Positions 1,289 to 13,812 of a DNA stretch of 13,812 nt are shown here, piece after piece (position 1 is the first letter of the stretch; every line of letters begins with the position of its first letter). The position numbers were made by a program, and so were the translations under genes. The notes below the pieces were generated by a model. That model did no database searches. It saw only the letters and a list, made by a program, of their open reading frames with translations, and was not told the origin of the DNA. Origin of the DNA: Candidatus Desantisbacteria bacterium CG1_02_49_89 (GTDB taxonomy: Bacteria > Desantisbacteria > UBA1551); the NCBI GenBank assembly GCA_001871075.1, contig MNUP01000092.1, positions 1 to 13,812 of the forward strand, in the 5' to 3' direction.

Positions 1289-1392
1289 TACTAAAATTAT
1301 GAATTATGAGTGATGAGTTATGAATCAACAGTAAGGTATTATATTTAAATAAAATTCCTTCATTCATAAATCATAATTCATAACTCATAATT
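1289..1392. repeat. Inverted heptamer arrays (TTATGAATTATGAG) around an A/T-rich AAGG...CCTT core
   Basis: The left arm (1296-1328) repeats ATTATGA-type heptamers. The right arm (1361-1392) is the same word inverted. Between them lies a 28-bp core, 1333-1360, that begins AAGG, ends CCTT and has the perfect palindrome TATTTAAATA (1342-1351) at its centre. The phrase TTATGAATCAA followed by a few bases and AAGG is repeated at 9381-9399, and the same kind of core recurs at 13596-13625. Stop codons occur in the word in both orientations. Confidence 0.8.
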
Positions 1393-2230: not shown

Positions 2231-2244
2231 CCTGCCTCCATATA

Positions 2245-2316
2245 GTGACCAGTGGCCAGTGGTCAGCAATCAACAATCAGTGATCAGTAGTGAGTGAACA
2301 GCAGACAGCAATCAAT
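2245..2316. repeat. Left heptamer array (CAGTGGTCAGCAATCA)
   Basis: Degenerate copies of the heptamers TGGCCAG, TGGTCAG, CAATCAA, CAATCAG, TGATCAG and TAGTGAG run from 2245 to about 2316. Read backwards they match the array at 2696-2755. The array overlaps the extended N-terminus that the thymidylate-synthase-family frame would have if it began at 2269, which argues against that start. Confidence 0.75.
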
Positions 2317-2336: not shown

Positions 2337-2690
2337 TTACAGTTTTGAAATAAGACCTCTCGTCATTTTTCTCAATTCGGTAATCTTCATATCAAATTTA
2401 TTTAATTCTTCCTCTGTTAAATATCCCAAATCCTTCGATATACATAATTGCGTGTCAAGTTCTGCAAGGGAACCCAATGCTATATGGAGAAATTGAATAA
2501 ATTCTTTTGAGTGCTGCCTAGCCTGCCCCTCAGCGATATTTGTAGGGATAGAGTTGGCGGACCTAAGAATTTGACTTATTAAAATATATTTTTCAATTTC
2601 TGGAAACTTCCTGATTGCTATATAAACCTCTTTTACAAGGTCTTTTGCTTTATTCCAGATCAATAAATCTTTATAATATTTAACTGTCAT
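2337..2690 (-). CDS. Four-helix-bundle protein, S23 / 23S rRNA IVS-encoded family
   Basis: A 117-residue protein of the family encoded in the intervening sequences of some bacterial 23S rRNAs (often called IVP or S23) and structurally related to Avd of diversity-generating retroelements. The family pattern is clear: YKDLLIWNKAKDLVKEVY (6-23), FPEIEKYILISQILRSANSI (residues 29-48), PTNIAEGQA, then EFIQFLHIALGSLAELDTQL (63-82), and a last helix to the C-terminus. Known members form pentameric helical bundles that bind nucleic acid; their cellular role is unknown. This copy is not in an rRNA gene. It is roughly one-third G+C, while its neighbours are near half. GGTGAG, 6 nt before the ATG, comes from the flanking repeat word and may be its ribosome-binding site. 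Confidence 0.9.
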   Translation of the reverse strand: MTVKYYKDLLIWNKAKDLVKEVYIAIRKFPEIEKYILISQILRSANSIPTNIAEGQARQHSKEFIQFLHIALGSLAELDTQLCISKDLGYLTEEELNKFDMKITELRKMTRGLISKL

Positions 2691-2695
2691 TTTTT

Positions 2696-2755
2696 ACTCA
2701 CCACTGACCACTCACCTTAGATTGCTGATCACTGATCACTCACCACTGACCACTG
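2696..2755. repeat. Right heptamer array (inverted copy of 2245-2316)
   Basis: Copies of CACTGAC, CACTCAC and TGATCAC fill the space between the ATG of the four-helix-bundle gene and the stop codon of ogt. On the minus strand it reads CAGTGGTCAGTGGTGAGTGA and continues to 6 nt before the ATG. It is therefore the leader of that gene, and the left array is its 3' flank in inverted form. Confidence 0.75.
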
Positions 2756-5301: not shown

Positions 5302-7125
5302 CTAAATTTTTAAAATGGAAAGGAAGGCTTCCTGCGGGATCTCAACCCTGCCTATCTGCTTCATGCGCTTTTTACCTTCCTTCTGCTTCTCCCACAGCTT
5401 CCTCTTGCGGGTAATGTCCCCGCCGTAACATTTGGCTGTAACCATTTTTTTCATCGCGGGTATTGTTTCCCTGGCGATTATCTTCCCGCCTATGGCAACC
5501 TGAATAGCGACCTCGAACATGTGCCGCGGGATGAGTTCCTTCAGTTTCTTGGCAAGCTCCCTGCCGCGGTGCCCGGCGTCTTCCCTGTGCACTATGAAGG
5601 AAAGGGCGTCGACCTTTTCTGTGGCGACCAGCACGTCTATCTTAACAAGGTCCCCGGCCCTGTAATCTATCAGCTCGTAGTCCATGCTCGCGTACCCGCT
5701 GGACGCGGTCTTGAGCTGGTCGTAGAACTCGAGTATCATCTCGCCCAGCGGCATCTCGTATTCAAGGTAAATATTCATCTCGTCCATATATTTCATGTTC
5801 TTGAATATACCGCGCTTATGCTTCAGTATCAGGTCCATTACGTTGCTGACGTATTTCTGGGGGGAGATCACAAAGATCTTGACAAAAGGCTCTTCTATCC
5901 GCTCCACGGAATTGCGGTCAGGAAAGCGCGAAGGGCTGTCTATCTCTATCACGCCCTTGCGCGTCGCGACGCGGTATATTACGCTGGGCATGGTCAGGAT
6001 GAGCTCAAGCCCGTATTCCCGCTCAAGCCGCTCGTTCACAATATCCATATGAAGCAGGCCGAGGAACCCGCACCTGAAACCGGGCCCCAGCGCGGGTGAG
6101 TCTTCCACAGCATAAGTAAAAGAAGCATCGTTAAGGCTCAGCTTGTCCAGGGAACGCTTCAGCATTTCAAAATCGCCCTGTCCCACCGGATAGAGGCTGG
6201 CAAAAACCATCGGTTTTATTTTTTTATACCCCGGCAGAGGCGCCAAAGCGGGCCTGCCGTCATTGGTGACCGTGTCGCCTATCTGCACGTCCCTGATGTT
6301 CTTTATATTCGCGATTATGTAACCGACGCGGCCCGCTGAAAGAGAATCGGTTTGTATCATCTTGCGGGGCTCAAAGACCCCGACTTTCGTGACCTCGTAT
6401 GTTTTATCCGTGAACATAAACCTTATTTTATCGCCCCTTTTGACCTCCCCGCACATTACTCTTACGTAAACGATCACGCCTTCGTAAGAGCTGAACGAGG
6501 AATCGAACACGAGGCAGGAAAGCGGCTCTGCCAGCGAACCTTTTGGAGGCGGGACTTCCCTGACGATCGCTTCAAGGACCTCCTTTGCACCCTGTCCTGT
6601 TTTAGCGCTGGCCAGGATAATGCTGGATGTTGGATGCTGGATGCCCGAAGATGCTGGATCACTGCCAAGGAGCTGAAGAAGCTGGGCGCGGGTGCGTTCC
6701 ACCATCGCGTTCGGAAGGTCTATTTTATTGATGACGGGTATGATCTTAAGCTTGTTCTGCATAGCAAGGTGCGCGTTTGCGATCGTCTGGGCTTCTACCC
6801 CCTGGCTTGCGTCCACAAGGAGCACCGCGCCCTCGCACGCGGCGAGGCTTCTTGAAACCTCGTAACTGAAATCAACGTGGCCCGGCGTGTCTATCAGGTT
6901 CAGAATGTAGTCTTTTCCGTCGTCCGCCTTGTATTTAATGCGCACCGCCTTTGCCTTGATGGTTATGCCCCGCTCCCTTTCCAGGTCCATTGAATCCAGG
7001 ACCTGGTCCTCCATGACCCTCTTGTCAACCGAGCCTGTTATCTCAAGCAGGCGGTCGGCAAGAGTGGATTTACCGTGGTCGATGTGCGCCACTATGCAAA
7101 AATTGCGTATCGGTTCCGTTTCCAT
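5302..7125 (-). CDS. lepA: Elongation factor 4 (LepA), with a repeat-coded insertion
   Basis: LepA is a ribosome-associated GTPase that acts on stalled or mis-translocated ribosomes. The G motifs are intact: AHIDHGKST at 13-21, DTPGH at 79-83, NKID at 133-136 and SAK at 173-175. The C-terminal domain ends in [20 protein letters not shown], typical of LepA. The length is 607 residues against 599 in E. coli. The surplus falls between NKID and SAK, at about residues 156-168 ([14 protein letters not shown]). That segment is encoded by GGATGCT/GGATGTT heptamers (6621-6660), an in-frame array of the word also seen at 13564-13655. The ATG at 7125 has AGAGGA upstream at rather long spacing. The leader is wholly repeat, so its promoter is probably upstream of the HAD gene or further. 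Confidence 0.96.
6621..6660. repeat. In-frame GGATGCT heptamer array inside lepA
   Basis: TGCTGGATGTTGGATGCTGG, ATGCCCGAAG and ATGCTGGATC form a short heptamer array. Read on the minus strand it is free of stop codons and encodes residues about 156-168 of LepA, in the loop before the SAK motif. It matches the intergenic array at 13564-13655. Confidence 0.75.
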
Positions 7126-7144
7126 TTATTAAAACATCCTCTAA

Positions 7145-7213
7145 CCACGAATTTGCACGGATTTCCACGAATTTAACTGGCTGAACTGGCATAACTGACT
7201 AAACTGGCTAAAC
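7145..7213. repeat. Decamer array joined to nonamer array
   Basis: At 7145-7174 the decamers CACGAATTTG, CACGGATTTC and CACGAATTTA repeat with period 10. At 7175-7213 a different word takes over with period near 9: minus strand GTTTAGCCA, GTTTAGTCA, GTTATGCCA, GTTCAGCCA. The first GTTTAG supplies the TAG stop codon of the HAD gene. The two arrays together fill the leader of lepA, leaving no room for a normal promoter. Confidence 0.75.
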
Positions 7214-8083
7214 TCTCTTCACTATCTTGCTGATCTGCGTAACGTCTTTCAGAATATAATCCGGTTTTTGCCTGCCTTTAGCCCCGCGCGCCATCTCCTG
7301 GTCGGTAGTACCGCTCAGGACGAGTATTGAAGAAACGCGCATCCTGTTTGCAAGCACTATATCCGTGTCAAGCCTGTCCCCGATGACAAAAGTATTTCCG
7401 CGGTTCAACCCGGACATGCCCGGTATGCCTTTTATTATATAAGGATTTGGCTTGCCGACAACACAGGGCTTGATGTTTGTTGCGGCTGTGAGGGCGGCAC
7501 CGATGGCGCCGCATCCGGGCCTCAGCTTTCTTCCCTGCATTGGATAAGTTTTGTCATTGTTCGTCGCTATGAAACCCGCGCCGCCGATTATAGCATCCGC
7601 TGCTCTTGCAAGCTTTTTATAGGTCAGGTGCCAGTCCGCTCCGATAACAACGTAATCTATTCTTCCGCCGTCTTTTACTGAAACTACTCTTACAGGCAGC
7701 TTCTCCATTTCACGGACAAGTGGTTTTTCCCCGATCACGAATATCCTTGGTTTTTTGGTTCTTAATCTTTTACTTGACACTGGTCGCCACTTCGGCGACC
7801 CGCCGATGAGGCGGGACACTGGACACTGGACACTGGACACTTTCTTTGCCAGGTACATCCTTGCCGCATTTGCCGAACAGATTATTTCTTCAAGGCGCGC
7901 TTTTATGCCAAGGCGCGAGAGTTTCTTCTGGTAACCGCGCTGGTTATTCGTTGAGTTGTTGGTAAGGTAATAAAGCCTGTGCCCTTTGCTTTGAAGCTTT
8001 TTCAGCAAAGCGGGTACGCGGGGATCCACAAGCTTATCCCCCAGCCATATCACGCCGTCAAGGTCGAAAATCAATGTAGCCAT
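7208..8083 (-). CDS. HAD-IIA (NagD-like) phosphatase with a repeat-coded insertion
   Basis: A cytoplasmic phosphatase of the haloacid dehalogenase superfamily, subfamily IIA (NagD, PLP phosphatase, p-nitrophenyl phosphatase). Motifs: DLDGVIW with nucleophile D7 and acid D9, TNNST at 41-45, GKPNP with lysine K211, and GDRLDTDI with D236 and D241. The cap region holds DYVVIGAD and FIATNNDKTYP. The substrate cannot be told from the sequence. Residues about 81-110 are extra relative to the family: they are encoded by a GGACACT heptamer array with two hairpins (7775-7843), placed between YLAKK and PRIFVIGE, which normally lie nearly adjacent. The stop codon TAG is inside the nonamer array at 7175-7213. 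The ATG at 8083 follows AAGGG. It lies 79 bp after the GGQ-protein gene. Confidence 0.9.
   Translation of the reverse strand: MATLIFDLDGVIWLGDKLVDPRVPALLKKLQSKGHRLYYLTNNSTNNQRGYQKKLSRLGIKARLEEIICSANAARMYLAKKVSSVQCPVSRLIGGSPKWRPVSSKRLRTKKPRIFVIGEKPLVREMEKLPVRVVSVKDGGRIDYVVIGADWHLTYKKLARAADAIIGGAGFIATNNDKTYPMQGRKLRPGCGAIGAALTAATNIKPCVVGKPNPYIIKGIPGMSGLNRGNTFVIGDRLDTDIVLANRMRVSSILVLSGTTDQEMARGAKGRQKPDYILKDVTQISKIVKRV
7775..7843. repeat. In-frame GGACACT heptamer array with two hairpins inside the HAD gene
   Basis: GACACTGG words at 7776-7783 and three further tandem copies at 7815-7840 flank two adjacent perfect hairpins: GGTCGCC/GGCGACC with loop ACTTC (7782-7800) and CCCGCC/GGCGGG with loop GATGA (7799-7815). 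The whole is read through by the HAD gene without a stop codon and encodes a peptide with SSVQCPVSRLIGGSPKWRPV. Confidence 0.85.
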
Positions 8084-8121
8084 TTTCCCTTATATTCAGT
8101 GTCAAAGTAAAAACAAAGATA

Positions 8122-8155
8122 GATCTCGTGATAATCGTGTGAAATCGTGTGGTTA
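8122..8155. repeat. Short-word array (ATCGTGTG type)
   Basis: ATCTCGTG, ATAATCGTGTG, AAATCGTGTG and GTTAAAA follow at about 10-bp steps. This is the inverse of the AACCACACGATT words at 641-675. The array lies in the 79-bp gap between the GGQ-protein stop and the HAD start. Confidence 0.65.
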
Positions 8156-8162
8156 AAATTTC

Positions 8163-8531
8163 TCATTGGTTATATTTTGCATCCGCCCTCTGCCTGCGCT
8201 TCGCCTTCCTGCGGCGCAGCTTTTCAAACTCCGCGAGACGCTGCGAGGTTTGGGGTGAAACCCGCATTTCGATCCTGTCCACAAGCTCGCGCAGGGCAAG
8301 GAACCTGTTTATACTGCGCCTGCGGTCTTTCTGCGTTTTAACTTCAATATTCAACTTCGAATAATTCAGGCGGACGCAGTTTGCTGTTTTGTTTATTTTC
8401 TGCCCGCCTTTGCCGCTGCCGCGGATAAACTGTTCCTCAATATCCGTAAGGTTTATTTTCAACCGCTGGATCCGCTCTTTGAGCGCGGTAATCTTCGCCG
8501 GCGATATCTGCGGCAATTCATTCAGTTTCAT
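8163..8531 (-). CDS. Release-factor-like GGQ protein (RF-1 domain only)
   Basis: A 122-residue protein with only the peptidyl-tRNA hydrolase domain of class I release factors. The motif GSGKGGQKINKTANCVRLNY (38-57) carries GGQ at 42-44, the loop that triggers ester hydrolysis on the ribosome. The domain is followed by RRRSINRFLALRELVDRI and a strongly basic tail, RRRKAKRRQRADAKYNQ. There is no codon-reading domain, so it belongs with the ArfB/YaeJ/ICT1 or mtRF-R (C12orf65) type rescue factors. The N-terminal 35 residues differ from ArfB. Its role in ribosome rescue is inferred. The ATG at 8531 overlaps the stop of the EamA half-gene as ATGA, a sign of coupled translation. The open frame extends back to 8804, but that part overlaps the transporter gene and has no family match. 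Confidence 0.88.
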   Translation of the reverse strand: MKLNELPQISPAKITALKERIQRLKINLTDIEEQFIRGSGKGGQKINKTANCVRLNYSKLNIEVKTQKDRRRSINRFLALRELVDRIEMRVSPQTSQRLAEFEKLRRRKAKRRQRADAKYNQ

Positions 8532-8938
8532 ATGCTTATAAGTATAAGGCCGACAACACCGTTGACGATACCCAGGACCGCCCTGAACCCTATTTTTTCC
8601 CTGAAAATAATGACCGCGAAGATCGTGACGGTGACCAGGTTCCCTCCGACCGCGACTGGGTATACTATCGTGCCCGGCACCTTGTTCAGCGCGAACATCA
8701 GGAATAAAGAACCAAGGAAACTGCTTATTCCCGCTCCCATTCCAGTAAAAATTTCCTTTTTCCCGAAGACGATCTTGTCCTTCAGGCAAAAGAAAAGGGA
8801 CCACAGGAACCCGGCTGAGTAGAATACGAACAGGTAGAATAAATTATGGCTGCCCAGGCCTGCCTGCACCAGGATCTTGGAAAACAGGAGGCATAAGCCG
8901 TTAAAGAAAAACGCCATTATAACGAATTTCTTCCACAT
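8528..8938 (-). CDS. EamA-type transporter, C-terminal half
   Basis: A 136-residue membrane protein with about five hydrophobic helices. The last four are: NLFYLFVFYSAGFLWSLFFC, a segment around GISSFLGSLFLMFALNKV, GTIVYPVAVGGNLVTVTIFA, and a last one ending GVVGLILISI. The phrase ALNKVPGTIVYPV, then REKIGFRAVLGIVNGVVGL, is characteristic of one EamA repeat of drug/metabolite transporters. The ATG directly follows the TAA of the preceding half-gene in the same reading frame, so the two could be one ten-helix protein broken by a stop codon, or a true two-subunit transporter. GGAG, 11 nt before the ATG, could start translation. The 3' end overlaps the GGQ-protein gene by 4 bp. The substrate is unknown. 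Confidence 0.8.
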   Translation of the reverse strand: MWKKFVIMAFFFNGLCLLFSKILVQAGLGSHNLFYLFVFYSAGFLWSLFFCLKDKIVFGKKEIFTGMGAGISSFLGSLFLMFALNKVPGTIVYPVAVGGNLVTVTIFAVIIFREKIGFRAVLGIVNGVVGLILISI

Positions 8939-9340
8939 TTAACTGTCGGCTCCTATCATGATTATCGCGAAACAGATAAGGGATAAGCCTGTGATCTTCT
9001 TCGGGTCAACCAGTTCTTTCCACAGGAATATGGAAAAAATGACCGGTATGACCATCCCCAGGTTCATTATCGTCCAGCAGGTGGAAATTTTCCCGTCTTT
9101 TAAAGCAAGAAGCGTGAACAGGAACGCAGCGAAGAGGAAGCTTCCCCCGCAGAGCGCCAGCAGCATGACTTTGCCGTGATACTGGTTCAGGCTGAAAAGG
9201 AAGAAAACGAAAGCCGACAGGCTGGCAAAGAGCAGGGTGTTCATGTTCACCGCGGCCGGGTTGCATTTCTTATGCGAGCTCAGCTTGAAAAACAACCCGA
9301 AGAGAGTATAAAACATCAGCGATAAAAAAGAAAACAGCAT
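8939..9340 (-). CDS. EamA-type transporter, N-terminal half
   Basis: A 133-residue membrane protein with about five hydrophobic helices: residues 1-20, 32-52, 57-80, 84-106 and 114-130. ALKDGKISTCWTIMNLGMVIPVIF followed by LWKELVDPKKITGLSLICFA is the repeat pattern of EamA drug/metabolite transporters (the stretch spans residues 80-123). In full-length members two such repeats lie in one chain of about 290 residues; here the two open frames together give 269. The stop TAA (8941-8939) is immediately followed, in frame, by the ATG of the second half. The ATG at 9340 has AAGGA upstream, and the leader carries the TTATGAG array at 9353-9413. Confidence 0.8.
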   Translation of the reverse strand: MLFSFLSLMFYTLFGLFFKLSSHKKCNPAAVNMNTLLFASLSAFVFFLFSLNQYHGKVMLLALCGGSFLFAAFLFTLLALKDGKISTCWTIMNLGMVIPVIFSIFLWKELVDPKKITGLSLICFAIIMIGADS

Positions 9341-9352
9341 ATAATCCTTAGG

Positions 9353-9413
9353 TTAATTATGAGTTATGCCCCGAGGGGCATTATGAATCAAAGACAAGGA
9401 TTTTTATTTGAAA
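9353..9413. repeat. TTATGAG array split by a GCCCC-GA-GGGGC hairpin, with core half
   Basis: TTAATTATGAGTTATG is followed by GCCCCGAGGGGC (9368-9379) and then ATTATGAATCAA, so the hairpin interrupts the word array at a word junction. The phrase TTATGAATCAA, then AAGG and an A/T-rich run, repeats the design at 1320-1350. The inverted right arm seen at 1361-1392 is missing here. Confidence 0.75.
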
Positions 9414-9472
9414 CCGTGTTTATCTGTATCTCTGTGATTGTTTTGCAATAATCCGTGGAAATCTGTGGTTTA
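9414..9472. repeat. GTGTTTATCTGTATCTCTGTG and CCGTGGAAATCTGTGG words
   Basis: CCGTGTTTATCTGTATCTCTGTG is followed by TTGTTTTGCAA and then ATCCGTGGAAATCTGTGG. These are further decamer words of the ATCCGTGG kind, related to CACGGATTT at 7145-7174. The array ends at the stop codon of the ROK gene. Confidence 0.6.
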
Positions 9473-10543
9473 TTATTTTCCCGCCCTTTGGAAGGCGGTC
9501 TTGGCAGCGCCAACCGCTCCCGCGTCATCCGGGAGCTTTCCTGCCACGATCATTAATTTTTTAACCGGGCCTTTGAACGCGCGTGCGCGCACCGTTTTCC
9601 ACATCGGTTTGAATAAAAGATTTCCCGCCCCGGTCAGGCCGCCTGTCAAAACCACGATCTCCGGGTTGAAAATATTCACGTAGTTCGCAATGGCGGAACC
9701 CAAATAGTATCCTGTGTCGTCCCAGATCTTTCTGGCAAGACCGTCGCCTTTCCGCGCTGCCTGCGCCACAACCGCGGGAGTGACCCTGCCCGGATCCCCG
9801 CCGATCAGTTTATACACAAGGCTCTTCTTGTTTTTCCTCAGGGCTTCTTTTGTCCTTCTTATTATCCCTATTGCCGGGGCATACGCTTCAAGGCAGCCAA
9901 GATTCCCGCACCCGCACTTCGGGCCGTCGAAAGAAAGCGAGATATGACCCAGTTCTCCCGCGTATCCGTCAGCGCCGTGGTAAACCCTGCCGTCTATTAT
10001 TATACCGCCGCCTATGCCTGTGCCCAGCGTAAGGCATATCATGTACCTGGTCCCTTTTCCCGCCCCTATCCACCATTCGCCAAGCGCGGCTGAATTCGCG
10101 TCGTTCTCAAGGAACGTGCGTATGCCGAACTCCCTTTTGTAAATGCTCGCAAGCGGCACGTTGTTCCATCCCGGGATATTGGGCGCCTCGTAAACTATTC
10201 CCTTTTCAAGGTTGACTAATCCCGGAGTCCCGATGCCTATCCCCACTACTGCCGTCGTGCGTCGTGCGTCGTGCGTCGTGCGTTGCCTCAACTTTTGTTG
10301 AGCTGGCAGCGAAATCCCCCCTGCCTGCCCATTAAGGGCAAGGGGAGACATTTTGCATTTTGCATTTTGCATTTTGCAATTCAGCACGCTGGCTATGCCC
10401 TGCGCGATCCGCCCGATAACATGGTCTTTTCCCTTCCATCCCTCCGTTGCGCGTTTATCCCGGGCCATGATCTTTCCCTTCTCGTTCATTAGAATCGTTA
10501 CTATGTTTGTGCCGCCCAGGTCAACGCCCACCGCGTACTTCAT
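9473..10543 (-). CDS. ROK-family sugar kinase (glucokinase-like) with a 43-residue repeat-coded insertion
   Basis: ROK proteins are ATP-dependent hexose kinases or sugar-responsive repressors. This one has no N-terminal DNA-binding domain, so a kinase is likely; glucose is only a guess. Motifs: phosphate-binding VDLGGTN (7-13), GIGIGTPGLV (101-110), catalytic ENDANSAALGE with D148, LTLGTGIGGGI (171-181), ELGHISL with H200, and the zinc motif CGCGNLGCLEAY (C210, C212, C217). The length is 356, more than the usual 300-320. The surplus is residues 55-97, which sit just before GIGIGTPG and read NCKMQNAKCKM, then a proline/glycine middle, then QRTTHDARRTTA. They are encoded by two different heptamer arrays and two hairpins (10253-10381). 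The rest appears intact, so the enzyme may still be active. The ATG at 10543 is the first residue of the family's start. Confidence 0.92.
   Translation of the reverse strand: MKYAVGVDLGGTNIVTILMNEKGKIMARDKRATEGWKGKDHVIGRIAQGIASVLNCKMQNAKCKMSPLALNGQAGGISLPAQQKLRQRTTHDARRTTAVVGIGIGTPGLVNLEKGIVYEAPNIPGWNNVPLASIYKREFGIRTFLENDANSAALGEWWIGAGKGTRYMICLTLGTGIGGGIIIDGRVYHGADGYAGELGHISLSFDGPKCGCGNLGCLEAYAPAIGIIRRTKEALRKNKKSLVYKLIGGDPGRVTPAVVAQAARKGDGLARKIWDDTGYYLGSAIANYVNIFNPEIVVLTGGLTGAGNLLFKPMWKTVRARAFKGPVKKLMIVAGKLPDDAGAVGAAKTAFQRAGK
10253..10381. repeat. In-frame composite of two heptamer arrays and two hairpins inside the ROK gene
   Basis: On the plus strand, CGTCGTG repeats four times at 10253-10282. 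A hairpin CTCAAC-TTTT-GTTGAG follows (10287-10302), then TGCCC-ATTAA-GGGCA (10326-10340) inside a wider C-run/G-run pair, then TTTTGCA repeated four times at 10351-10379. Both arrays have period 7. The whole 129 bp is read in frame by the ROK gene. Confidence 0.88.
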
Positions 10544-10558
10544 TTAACCCCCAAGAAT

Positions 10559-10658
10559 AACCACAGAGGCACAGAGACACAGAGTCTTTTAATTTAAAAA
10601 ATAAAATGGCCAGAGAATTAAAGTAAATATTTTCTCCGTGCCTCCGTGTCTCCGTGGT
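10559..10658. repeat. Inverted octamer arrays (CACAGAGA / CTCCGTGT) around an A/T-rich core
   Basis: The left arm ACCACAGAGGCACAGAGACA... (10560-10584) and the inverse of the right arm (10634-10658) agree at 20 of 25 positions. The five differences are all A/G and fall every fourth base. The core 10585-10633 is A/T-rich. In a minus-strand transcript four of the five differences become G-U pairs, so the RNA stem is almost continuous. The array starts 2 bp after the stop of the PLD-family gene. Confidence 0.8.
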
Positions 10659-10660
10659 AA

Positions 10661-11218
10661 TTATTTGCAGAGAGTAACTATATCCTCGAAATATTTGATG
10701 TATTCCTTCGCGACCTGCTCCGAATCAATAAGCGCGTTGGTTTCGTTGTTCTGGTTAAGCGCCTGGTACGACCAGTTGGTGCTTCCCACCACGGTGAAAC
10801 GCGAATCTACCACCAGGAGCTTCGAATGGGTGGTCACCTTCTTGTCATCCATATAGACCTTTACCCCTCCGGCGGAAAGTATCTTCGCGACGTCCTCGTT
10901 GTCGGGAGAGCCTTGCGTTTTCCGCTCCTCTCCCATCCTGTCCATAATGACACTGACGTCCACGCCGCGCTTCCTGGCGGCGACAAGGCTTTTGACAAGC
11001 CTGTTAGAAAGGCTGTCGGGATATTTTTCGTAGTAGATGGTGTGGTACATTATCACGTAAACCGATCTCTGGGCATTGGATATCAGGGAATAGACTGTTT
11101 TGAAGTAGGCGGAATCGTTCAGGGGTTTTACTTCAGCGGGGAAGGAATGGCAGGACATACAGATTGAGGCTGAGATTAAGACTAAAGCAAAAATATACAA
11201 ATATTTTGCGGGTTTCAT
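10661..11218 (-). CDS. Secreted or membrane-bound PLD-superfamily protein, single HKD motif
   Basis: A 185-residue protein with a hydrophobic N-terminal segment (residues 6-22), followed by one phospholipase-D-type domain. The HKD motif is THSKLLVVDSRFTVVGSTNW with H131, K133 and D138, then N148 and the downstream NNETN with E159. Single-HKD members such as the Nuc endonuclease work as dimers; the family includes nucleases, lipid hydrolases and transferases. The substrate is unknown. Cysteines at 20 and 23 lie near the signal end but do not form a good lipobox, so lipid anchoring is doubtful. AAGG precedes the ATG at 11218. The upstream gap to proS consists of hairpin repeats, so expression probably depends on read-through from proS. 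Confidence 0.85.
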   Translation of the reverse strand: MKPAKYLYIFALVLISASICMSCHSFPAEVKPLNDSAYFKTVYSLISNAQRSVYVIMYHTIYYEKYPDSLSNRLVKSLVAARKRGVDVSVIMDRMGEERKTQGSPDNEDVAKILSAGGVKVYMDDKKVTTHSKLLVVDSRFTVVGSTNWSYQALNQNNETNALIDSEQVAKEYIKYFEDIVTLCK

Positions 11219-11233
11219 TGAATACCTTTTTCA

Positions 11234-11300
11234 GGCAGAGCCCCAAAGGGGTCCCCCAAGGGGATCCCATAGGGACCTTTGGGACAGGCTCTGCCACTAC
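11234..11300. repeat. Long nested hairpin with GTAGTGG prefix
   Basis: GGCAGAGCC (11234-11242) pairs perfectly with GGCTCTGCC (11287-11295). Inside, CCCAAAGGGGTCCC faces GGGACCTTTGGG, and at the centre lies GGGATCCCATAGGGACC, nearly the same as GGGATCCCTTAGGGAC at 734-749. On the minus strand the unit is preceded by GTAGTGG, the prefix type of 3472-3496 and 11317-11340. It lies in the leader of the PLD-family gene. Confidence 0.75.
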
Positions 11301-11316
11301 TTTTAAATCAATAACG

Positions 11317-11340
11317 GGTCGGATAAATCCGACCGCTACA
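11317..11340 (-). repeat. GTAGCGG-prefixed hairpin supplying the proS stop codon
   Basis: The perfect hairpin GGTCGGAT, loop AA, ATCCGACC (11317-11334) is followed by GCTACA. On the minus strand the order is TGTAGC and then the stem. The TAG is the stop codon of proS. After the stem comes CGTTATTGATTT, a weak T-run, so a terminator role is possible but not convincing. Confidence 0.75.
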
Positions 11341-13054
11341 GTTTAATTAATTTTAAAATTTCGCTGACTGCCTCAGATTTTTCAACTTTCTGTTTTTCGC
11401 CTGAGGACCGGAGCTGGACCTCGACCTTTCCTTCTTTCAAAGCCCTGTCGCCAAGCACGACCTTGACCGGTATGCCGGTCAGGTCCGCGTCCTTGAACTT
11501 CACGCCCGCAGGCTCGTTCCTGTCGTCCAGCAGGACATCGGCTCCCTTTGCGGTAAGCCCTTCGTAGATTTCTTCAGCGAGTTTTTTCTGGGTCTCGTCA
11601 TTCATGTTGAGCGGGAGTATTACTGCGGAAAAAGGCGCTATCGAGAAAGGCCAGATTATCCCGTTCTCGTCGTTATGCTGCTCGATGACCGCGGCTATTA
11701 TGCGGCTCACCCCTATGCCGTAGCAGCCCATGACCATGATCTTTTCTTTCCCGTCTTCGTCAAGGAATTTCGCTTTCATAGCTGAGCTGTAACGCGTGCC
11801 CAGGTTGAAAGTGTGGCCCAGTTCTATGCCTGTCTTGACCTCGGTGCCGGCGCCGCATTTCGGGCACGGGTCACCGTCCCTTGCGGCCGTCAGGTCTTCG
11901 AATCTTTCAATCTTGAAATCTCTGTCAGGGTTCACATTAAACAGGTGCGTGTCCTTCTTGTTCGCCCCCGTGACAAAATCAGACATCCCGGCCACCGAAT
12001 GATCCGCGATCATCCCGGCCTTCAGGCCTACAGGGCCGCTGAAACCCATGGGCCCGCCTGTAAGCTCCTCTATCTGGTCCGCGGAAGCAAGTTTTAAACC
12101 GGCGGTTTTCAGCACTGACATCAGCTTCGCTTCATTCACTTCCCTGTCACCCGGAACAAGCACTGCAACAGGTTTCCCGTCAGCGTAGTATATAAGGGTT
12201 TTTACAAGCTGCGAAGGTTTTACTTTCAGGAAAGCCGACACCTGCTCCACCGTCTTCATGTCCGGCGTGTTTACTTCTTTCATTTCGTCGTGCGTCGTGC
12301 GTCGTAAGTCGTACGACGTCTGACGTTCGACGTCCGACGGTTTATCAGGTTTATCCGCGTTGGCGCGGTAACCGCACTTGGGGCACAACACAACAATATC
12401 CTCGCCGCTTGGGGCAAGCACCATGAACTCGTGCGAAAGGCCCCCGCCGATAAGGCCGGGGTCCGCCTCGACGATCTCGCAGTCAAGACCGCAGCGCCTG
12501 AATATCCTCACGTACGCGTCATAAACTTTTTTATAGGTTCCCTGCAGGCATTTGTCGTCTCTGTGGAAGGAGTAGGCATCTTTCATGAGGAATTCCCTGC
12601 AGCGCATCATTCCGAAACGGGGCCGCGGTTCATCCCTGAACTTTGTCTGTATCTGGTACAAGAGCAGCGGGAGCTCCTTGTAGGAACGGACCTCGTTGCG
12701 CACCAGGTTAGTGATCGCCTCTTCGTGGGTGGGCGCGAGGCAGAAAGGCCTTTTCTTGCGGTCAAAAAGGTGGAACATGTCCTCGCCGTAAAGGTCCCAC
12801 CTGCCGGATTCGTCCCAGAGTTCCTTGGGGTGGACCGCGGGAAGCAAAACTTCCTGCGCTCCGGCGCCGTTCATTTCTTCCCTGACTATTCCGATAATCC
12901 TTTGAAGGACCCGAAACCCAAACGGCAGATAGTAATAGATGCCGCTGGCAAGCCTTCTTATAAGCCCGGCCCTCAGCATAAGCTGGTGGCTCCTGATCTC
13001 GGCGTCGCTGGGTACTTCCTTCAATGTGGGGAGAAAAAATTCACTTCTTCTCAT
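11336..13054 (-). CDS. proS: Proline--tRNA ligase, bacterial type, with a repeat-coded insertion
   Basis: ProRS charges tRNA-Pro and clears mischarged alanine through an insertion (editing) domain. Class II motifs are present: motif 1 around SGIYYYLPFGFRVL (37-50), motif 2 with FRDEPRPRFGMMRCREFLMKD (two parts: FRDEPRPRFG at 139-148, MRCREFLMKDA at 150-160), and motif 3 in GCYGIGVSRIIAA. The editing domain runs from about residue 262 to 400 and includes VKTLIYYADGKP and GFSGPVGL. At 572 residues the length is usual. Residues about 237-256 (DKPSDVERQTSYDLRRTTHD), between CPKCGYRAN and EVNTPDMKT, are coded by a CGTCGTG repeat array (12286-12340). AAAGGA precedes the ATG at 13054. The stop TAG belongs to the hairpin repeat 11317-11340. 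Confidence 0.96.
   Translation of the reverse strand: MRRSEFFLPTLKEVPSDAEIRSHQLMLRAGLIRRLASGIYYYLPFGFRVLQRIIGIVREEMNGAGAQEVLLPAVHPKELWDESGRWDLYGEDMFHLFDRKKRPFCLAPTHEEAITNLVRNEVRSYKELPLLLYQIQTKFRDEPRPRFGMMRCREFLMKDAYSFHRDDKCLQGTYKKVYDAYVRIFRRCGLDCEIVEADPGLIGGGLSHEFMVLAPSGEDIVVLCPKCGYRANADKPDKPSDVERQTSYDLRRTTHDEMKEVNTPDMKTVEQVSAFLKVKPSQLVKTLIYYADGKPVAVLVPGDREVNEAKLMSVLKTAGLKLASADQIEELTGGPMGFSGPVGLKAGMIADHSVAGMSDFVTGANKKDTHLFNVNPDRDFKIERFEDLTAARDGDPCPKCGAGTEVKTGIELGHTFNLGTRYSSAMKAKFLDEDGKEKIMVMGCYGIGVSRIIAAVIEQHNDENGIIWPFSIAPFSAVILPLNMNDETQKKLAEEIYEGLTAKGADVLLDDRNEPAGVKFKDADLTGIPVKVVLGDRALKEGKVEVQLRSSGEKQKVEKSEAVSEILKLIKL
12286..12340. repeat. In-frame CGTCGTG / ACGTC array inside proS
   Basis: CGTCGTG repeats three times from 12286, meets the perfect palindrome GTCGTACGAC (12308-12317), and continues with inverted ACGTC-type words (ACGACGTCTGACGTTCGACG). 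It has the same heptamer as the array inside the ROK gene (10253-10282). The minus strand is open through it and encodes about 19 residues at the edge of the editing domain. Confidence 0.82.
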
Positions 13055-13563: not shown

Positions 13564-13655
13564 GATGCTGGATGTTGGATGCTAGATCCTTGATCAAGGA
13601 TTTTCAATTAAAATAGAAATTCCTTCCGTTCCGGAATCCAGCATCCAGGATCTAG
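13564..13655. repeat. Inverted GGATGCT arrays around an A/T-rich AAGG...CCTT core
   Basis: The left arm GATGCTGGATGTTGGATGCT and the right arm (13633-13655; inverse CTAGATCCTGGATGCTGGAT) carry the same heptamers inverted. Between them lie the perfect 16-bp palindrome ATCCTTGATCAAGGAT (13586-13601) and a 30-bp core that begins AAGG (13596) and ends CCTT (13625), like the core at 1333-1360. The word is the one inserted in lepA at 6621-6660. Confidence 0.82.
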
Positions 13656-13699
13656 TGTGGTGTCACATAAATCCCTTGACATTTGATTCTGCTTTGAGT
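13656..13699. other. Gene-free spacer
   Basis: The right end of the window from 13558 on has no gene that can be supported. Between the two repeats this stretch holds only CCCTTGACATTTGATT, with a TTGACA but no matching -10 box. A start codon at 13558 opens only 11 codons before a stop. Confidence 0.5.
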
Positions 13700-13785
13700 T
13701 GTCATTGCGAGCGACCAAAGGGAGCGTGGCAATCTCGATTTTTAGGTCGAGATTGCTTCGTCGTTAACACTCCTCGCAATGACAG
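13700..13785. repeat. Dispersed palindromic repeat TGTCATTGCGAG...CTCGCAATGACA
   Basis: The outer arms TGTCATTGCGAG (13700-13711) and CTCGCAATGACA (13773-13784) are a perfect 12-bp inverted pair. The inner arms GCAATCTCGA (13729-13738) and TCGAGATTGC (13747-13756) form a perfect 10-bp stem. GATTGCTTCGTC leads to the right outer arm. A half copy is at 3434-3467. The wording is familiar from dispersed repeats in many unrelated bacteria. Confidence 0.85.
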
Positions 13786-13812
13786 CCCAAATGTAAAGAT
13801 CTGTTAGAGACA

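What the first reader, a model, noticed from the sequence alone, without database searches (positions are those of the whole stretch)
6621..12340. Repeat arrays inside four conserved genes use only words free of stop codons
Arrays lie in frame in lepA, the HAD gene, the ROK gene and proS. The words are GGATGCT, GGACACT, TTTTGCA and CGTCGTG. A heptamer cycles through all three frames, so a word containing a stop in its coding orientation must stop translation within 21 bases. These four words contain none on the minus strand. Words that do contain TGA or TAA (TTATGAG, TGGTCAG and their inverses) are found only between genes. This is what random insertion followed by selection would leave. Known precedent: Rickettsia palindromic elements inserted in frame in proteins. 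Here several unrelated words behave alike, which suggests one mechanism that copies the pattern and not a particular sequence.
Basis: partly seen in the sequence, partly recalled or inferred. Interest (0 to 1): 0.85.

Follow-up and report, generated by a model that had tools for sequence, protein, structure and literature searches.

The report
Heptamer arrays are mobile-element ends

Summary
Period-7 arrays number 235 in 770 kb of this genome against 3 expected. The lepA, HAD and ROK arrays are insertions absent from relatives; the proS array replaces a variable linker. The stop-free rule also holds, but it is forced: only arrays open on the coding strand can be seen inside a gene.

The arrays have a source. 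Window gene 2337-2690 is an IVP gene (PF05635) between inverted heptamer arrays. Seven of ten IVP genes here have such arms, each with its own word. Across phyla, 43 of 74 IVP genes have inverted flanks above the 99% null level, mostly of period 7. Array words in this genome, in genes and outside, match IVP arm words far above chance. In Nostocales plasmids, IVP plus arms is present or absent as one 417-506 bp unit, with 3-5 bp apparent target duplications; an internally deleted copy and an IVP-less hairpin lie at such sites. GxxExxY genes (PF13366) have similar ends with periods 8-10.

How they move, and why the spacing is seven, is inferred: the IVP pentamer may read one unit per subunit. 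The papers I could search do not make this link.

The parts
2244..2310 (+). period-7 arm (AGTGACC AGTGGCC AGTGGTC AGCAATC AACAATC AGTGATC ...), left end of the IVP element
   Evidence: pairs with 2696-2755 as inverted repeat (score 26)
2337..2690 (-). IVP gene, four-helix-bundle '23S rRNA-intervening sequence protein' (PF05635, E 7e-39; bAvd PF22296 E 5e-7)
   Evidence: relatives with solved structure 2gsc and 2rld, five chains each
2696..2755 (-). inverted period-7 arm, right end of the IVP element
   Evidence: whole element folds with a long closing stem, z = -7.2
6620..6644 (-). heptamer array inside lepA (coding GCATCCA), 9-aa insertion absent from 28 of 29 relatives; the same-order relative has a different 29-aa insertion at this site
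7774..7843 (-). HAD-gene insertion with array 7814-7841 (coding CAGTGTC) and two small hairpins; +19 aa against the nearest relative; outer limits approximate
10253..10381 (-). ROK-gene insertion with two arrays, 10253-10283 (CGTCGTG) and 10349-10381 (TTTTGCA); about 34 aa absent from relatives
12286..12339 (-). palindromic array in proS, in a variable linker (+4 aa against the same-order relative)
1295..1392 (.). AATTATG mini-element: four heptamers, about 40-nt core, four inverted heptamers; member of a dispersed family (19 copies aligned in 770 kb) with sharp ends
   Evidence: DNA fold z = -4.8
13564..13655 (.). GGATGCT mini-element (same word as the lepA array), inverted arms
   Evidence: DNA fold z = -5.2
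10562..10656 (.). period-8 inverted pair (CACAGAGG / CTCCGTGC), of the kind found around GxxExxY (PF13366) genes elsewhere
   Evidence: DNA fold z = -3.0
7146..7228 (.). period-10 (CCACGAATTT) and period-9 (AACTGGCTA) arrays between lepA and HAD

Best explanation
The arrays are terminal arms, and decayed remnants of arms, of small mobile hairpin elements. The gene-bearing form is [heptamer array] - IVP gene - [inverted heptamer array], about 0.4-0.5 kb; shorter forms have lost the gene, and single arrays are deletion derivatives. Each element lineage has its own word; the period (7, sometimes 8) is what is conserved. Copies landing in a gene persist only if open in the coding strand and tolerated by the protein, which gives the stop-free rule. 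Shown here: the anatomy, the cross-phylum association, presence/absence as one unit with 3-5 bp apparent target duplications, and the shared words. Inferred: IVP, whose solved relatives have five chains and which has invariant polar residues, binds the arm with one 7-nt unit per subunit, so period is selected while the word drifts with the protein; movement goes through a hairpin intermediate with host or trans-acting enzymes. I put the element claim at about 0.85, the ring-reading step at about 0.3, and offer no firm transposition chemistry.
For: Own genome: window, C39, C114, C56, C23, C6 and C125 IVP genes lie between inverted arrays with seven different words. Cross-phylum: 43 of 74 IVP genes have inverted-repeat flanks above the 99% level of mismatched-flank nulls (0.7 expected); 30 of 36 periodic arms have period 7. 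Mini-elements: in this genome 25 of 42 neighbouring array pairs 30-60 bp apart are inverted, against about 4% of random pairs; one family has sharp ends and four units per arm. Words: 37 of 222 outside arrays and 5 of 19 in-gene arrays match an IVP arm word exactly, expected 1.7 and 0.1. Mobility: Trichormus plasmid C versus Nostoc linckia plasmid, flanks 98-100% identical, 428-bp insert with GTAAT on both sides; Nostoc ATCC 53789 plasmids, 506 bp (ATG) and 417 bp (TTCTA). Derivatives: L374 retains one array and part of the gene; L377 has inverted arms without IVP at the tra site where L358 has IVP. IVP-positive genomes: 15 period-7 arrays in 290 kb; IVP-negative: 0 in 454 kb. Structure: five chains in 2gsc and 2rld; N51 and E77 invariant in 66 of 66 sequences, Q40, S47, E54 in 97-98%.
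Against: 31 of 74 IVP genes show no significant inverted flanks at the threshold used. The genome-level co-occurrence is weak as a count of genomes (Fisher p = 0.057); one IVP-positive genome holds 10 of the 15 arrays. The commonest family here (AATTATG) has no IVP copy with the same word in this assembly. No transposase or reverse transcriptase is consistently present, so the enzymology is unknown. Empty sites come from cyanobacterial plasmids, not from this genome, and only three give clean junctions. The Mantel correlation is small and may reflect common descent only. The five-fold ring reading rests on chain counts, not on binding data.
Confidence: 0.8

Rival explanations
1. Arrays grow in place by polymerase slippage with a preferred step of seven bases (the proposal of Mrazek et al. 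2007 as reported in PMC4679880 and PMC4692102); the IVP association is incidental.
For: Heptamers are the commonest 5-11 nt class in many bacterial genomes (PMC4679880); array lengths vary between copies.
Against: Does not predict inverted arms of the same word around one gene family in several phyla, a dispersed family with fixed four-unit arms, conserved core and sharp ends, or gain of both arms plus gene as one unit with short duplications. Slippage may still adjust unit number.
Confidence: 0.08
2. Arrays are independent insertion-prone or regulatory repeats, and IVP genes merely insert into pre-existing arrays.
For: Small elements are reported to favour repeats in cyanobacteria (own knowledge, not checked here); many arrays here have no IVP.
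Against: In three empty sites there is no array: arms and gene arrive together. Left and right arms are inverted, not direct as splitting one array would give.
Confidence: 0.05
3. The elements are RNA-level retroelements moved by a reverse transcriptase with IVP as an Avd-like partner (a variant of the best explanation that differs in the enzyme).
For: IVP is homologous to the DGR accessory protein Avd (PMC10053308; bAvd profile hit).
Against: RVT_1 was not found in 8 of 12 IVP-positive genomes tested, including G004, G017 and G040.
Confidence: 0.15

Closest known systems
Intervening sequences (IVS) of 23S rRNA with an S23p/IVP reading frame (Leptospira, Coxiella; PMC4990558)
   Same: Same protein family; about 0.4 kb; complementary ends forming a stem with the gene in the loop; treated as selfish elements.
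   Different: Here located between and inside protein genes, not in rRNA; arms are periodic arrays with lineage-specific words; gene-less derivatives are abundant. RNase III excision untested.
Heptamer repeats: cyanobacterial STRR, Xanthomonas GGGAATC, Beggiatoaceae TAACTGA (PMC4692102, PMC4679880)
   Same: Period 7, mode near four units, mostly intergenic; in Xanthomonas 70-75 inverted pairs per genome.
   Different: Those reports treat single words and found no mobile element; here many words share one anatomy and a gene.
MITEs
   Same: Short, terminal inverted repeats, short target duplications, gene-less derivatives of a gene-bearing element.
   Different: No transposase; termini conserved in period, not in sequence.
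REP sequences and REP-associated tyrosine transposases
   Same: A gene flanked by inverted copies of a short repeat also scattered alone over the genome.
   Different: IVP is a four-helix bundle, not a Y1/HUH transposase (from the family's known fold); the GTAG/CGTC tag of REPs was not searched for.
Rickettsia palindromic elements
   Same: Palindromic repeats tolerated in frame inside conserved proteins.
   Different: RPEs are families of one sequence; here several unrelated words, and often a single arm only.

Membership tests
23S rRNA IVS / S23p element | encodes PF05635 protein | tested here: met
   E 7.3e-39, over cut-off
23S rRNA IVS / S23p element | complementary ends forming a closing stem | tested here: met
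   (z -7.2)
23S rRNA IVS / S23p element | lies inside a 23S rRNA gene | tested here: not met
   window copy lies between protein genes
23S rRNA IVS / S23p element | excised by RNase III | not testable with these tools
   needs RNA work
Heptamer STRR / long simple sequence repeats | tandem 7-nt units well above chance, mostly intergenic | tested here: met
MITE | terminal inverted repeats and sharp ends in many copies | tested here: met
   (AATTATG family, 19 copies)
MITE | target-site duplication | tested here: inconclusive
   3-5 bp repeats at three cyanobacterial plasmid sites; not testable in the window genome
MITE | cognate transposase with the same ends | tested here: not met
   gene between matching ends is IVP or GxxExxY, not a transposase
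Diversity-generating retroelement | reverse transcriptase present | tested here: not met
   absent from 8 of 12 IVP-positive genomes; one partial RT in this genome
Rickettsia palindromic element | in-frame insertion in conserved proteins | tested here: met
Rickettsia palindromic element | one homologous sequence family | tested here: not met
   unrelated words in lepA, HAD, ROK, proS

The most novel reading that the evidence does not exclude
A widespread class of bacterial mobile element whose ends are defined by a period (7 or 8 nt with IVP, 8-10 nt with GxxExxY) and not by a sequence, because a ring-shaped protein reads one repeat unit per subunit; the long-known heptamer repeats of cyanobacteria, Xanthomonas and others are its debris.
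Probability: 0.4. Interest if true: 0.92.

Novelty: new variant of a known kind. Interest (0 to 1): 0.82.

Why it matters
Heptamer repeats in bacteria have been noted since Calothrix STRRs, with slippage, G-quadruplexes and translation control offered as explanations. IVP/S23p ('four helix bundle protein') is a common family with solved structures and no function. Tying the two together explains the first, gives the second a testable role, and offers a mobile element whose ends keep a rhythm while the letters change. It also explains odd peptides such as RRTTHDARRTT or NCKMQNAKCKM in otherwise conserved proteins.

Tried and rejected
Reverse transcriptase as common driver: rejected as a general rule. 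IVP hits that are partial or diverged (for example L147, L149-L151, L160) show no arms and lower the 43 of 74 figure; I kept them in. My first gene caller cut gene starts at inserts, so in-gene status was redone from open frames and from flanking coding scores. A test of stop-free words against gene interiors is circular, because gene calls require open frames; I report it as such. Covariation between arms was not scored, since orientation of near-palindromic copies is ambiguous. Xanthomonas XCC0516 could not be read in the collections available. The nrd-operon pair (L353/L372), the integrase pair (L357/L371) and the tra pair (L358/L369) gave no clean junction. Literature: ten searches of the open-access library; none linked heptamer arrays with IVP, but subscription papers are not covered.

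Full report
CHECK OF THE OBSERVATION. ROK holds two, so there are five arrays in four genes. Period 7 is strongly in excess in this genome: 235 arrays in 770 kb against 3 in a third-order Markov control, with smaller excesses at 8, 9 and 10. The window is a whole contig (C96) of a 2.48-Mb assembly in 150 contigs. Its closest named relative in the collections is Candidatus Desantisbacteria CG1_02_38_46 (LepA 76-78% identical).

ARE THEY INSERTIONS? In lepA the array is a 9-aa insertion absent from 28 of 29 relatives; the same-order relative carries a different 29-aa insertion at exactly this place, so the site is tolerant. In HAD there are 19 and in ROK about 34 additional residues. In proS the array lies in a linker of variable length and is almost length-neutral.

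THE STOP-FREE RULE. All 19 in-gene arrays found in the sample are open on the coding strand, and none of 87 arrays with stops on both strands is in a gene (Fisher p = 3e-4). This is expected of any survivor inside an intact gene and is partly circular. Most stop-free arrays are intergenic too. Arrays interrupt open coding sequence in 6% of cases against 39% for random positions. So insertion plus selection is right, but it says little about the maker.

THE MAKER. The window gene at 2337-2690 is an IVP (PF05635). It lies between two inverted heptamer arrays, and the whole folds into a long closing stem (z = -7.2). The genome has ten IVP genes, counting one pseudogene hit in two pieces. Seven lie between inverted period-7 arrays, each with another word; one (C55) has period-8 arrays on both sides, and one at a contig end has a period-8 array on its visible side. 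Among inverted array pairs 300-700 bp apart, five of nine enclose an IVP and one a GxxExxY gene.

CROSS-PHYLUM TEST. From IVP genes in other genomes and in plasmids I compared upstream with downstream flanks. 43 of 74 have an inverted repeat above the 99% level of mismatched flanks (expected 0.7); of 36 arms with clear periodicity 30 have period 7, four period 8, two period 9. The words differ widely. Closely related IVPs have similar words (AACAGGG/AAAAGGG; ACAGGTG/ACAGGGG, the latter from Anabaena and from another lineage); overall Mantel r = 0.155, p = 0.006. The upstream arm is purine-rich on the coding strand in 29 of 36.

MOBILITY. Plasmid hits for IVP are mostly from Nostoc, Calothrix and other cyanobacteria, the group known for heptamer repeats. 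Trichormus variabilis plasmid C and a Nostoc linckia plasmid are 98-100% identical on either side of a 428-bp unit made of arm, IVP and arm; GTAAT occurs on both sides of the insert and once in the empty site, directly at the upstream stop codon. Nostoc ATCC 53789 plasmids give two further units (506 bp, ATG; 417 bp, TTCTA), also at gene ends. At such sites other plasmids have derivatives: one array plus a truncated gene (L374), and a 232-bp IVP-less hairpin with inverted arms (L377). These are the steps that would lead to the gene-less and single-array forms in the window genome.

MINI-ELEMENTS IN THIS GENOME. Of 42 neighbouring array pairs 30-60 bp apart, 25 are inverted. The AATTATG family, including window 1295-1392, has four heptamers, a 40-45-nt core and four inverted heptamers with sharp ends in 19 copies. 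Array words match IVP arm words of the same genome exactly in 37 of 222 outside arrays (1.7 expected) and 5 of 19 in-gene arrays (0.1 expected).

A SECOND FAMILY. GxxExxY genes (PF13366) have inverted arms with periods 8, 9 or 10 (CACAGAGG, CAGATTACG, CACGAATTT, CACGGATGAA) in this and other genomes. PF13366 occurs in 8 of 12 IVP-positive and 1 of 24 IVP-negative genomes (p = 1e-4). The other arrays of the window (7146-7228, 10562-10656) have such words.

MECHANISM. Solved IVP relatives 2gsc and 2rld have five chains each, and PMC4990558 describes the Xanthomonas protein as a homopentamer. Arms have a median of about five units and array length peaks between four and five. A ring with one 7-nt contact per subunit would select for period and let the word drift, as the TRAP ring does with its spaced triplets (own knowledge). 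Invariant N51 and E77 and nearly invariant Q40, S47, E54 suggest that the protein does more than scaffold. A reverse transcriptase does not seem to be required. These steps are inference.

LIMITS. The genome-level co-occurrence of arrays and IVP is suggestive only (15 arrays in 16 positive genomes, 0 in 24 negative; Fisher p = 0.057 by genome; one genome contributes ten). 31 of 74 IVP genes lack recognisable arms. The target duplications rest on three sites. The library searched has no subscription papers, so an earlier description cannot be excluded.

Noticed in passing
L356, L360, L363 (cyanobacterial plasmids): IVP genes sit inside CRISPR operons (between cas6 and cas4; between cas10 and a cmr3-like gene); this may explain reports of IVP as a CRISPR-linked gene.
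   Followed up: no
G009, e.g. C7:104028-104554, C2:122174-122711: One genome carries 19 short IVP hits arranged as divergent pairs a few hundred bases apart, a different layout from the array-flanked form.
   Followed up: no
L066 / G001:C125 (lepA): The same-order relative has a different 29-aa, non-periodic insertion at the same point of LepA, so this loop appears to be a tolerant insertion site.
   Followed up: partly
window 13660-13800; L024, L057: The right end of the contig shares a longer dispersed repeat (GATTGCTTCGTCGTTAACACTCCTCGCAATGACA) with other contigs, probably why the assembly breaks there.
   Followed up: no
own genome, period 9 (AGTTTACAG) and period 8 (GTGTCAAC) families, e.g. 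L007:6273-6400, L007:7757-7853: Further hairpin families with inverted arms of period 9 and 8 and short cores, without an identified gene.
   Followed up: partly
IVP alignment, residues Q40, S47, N51, E54, E77 of the window protein (2337-2690): Invariant or nearly invariant polar residues in a family regarded as of unknown function; they look like an active or binding site.
   Followed up: no
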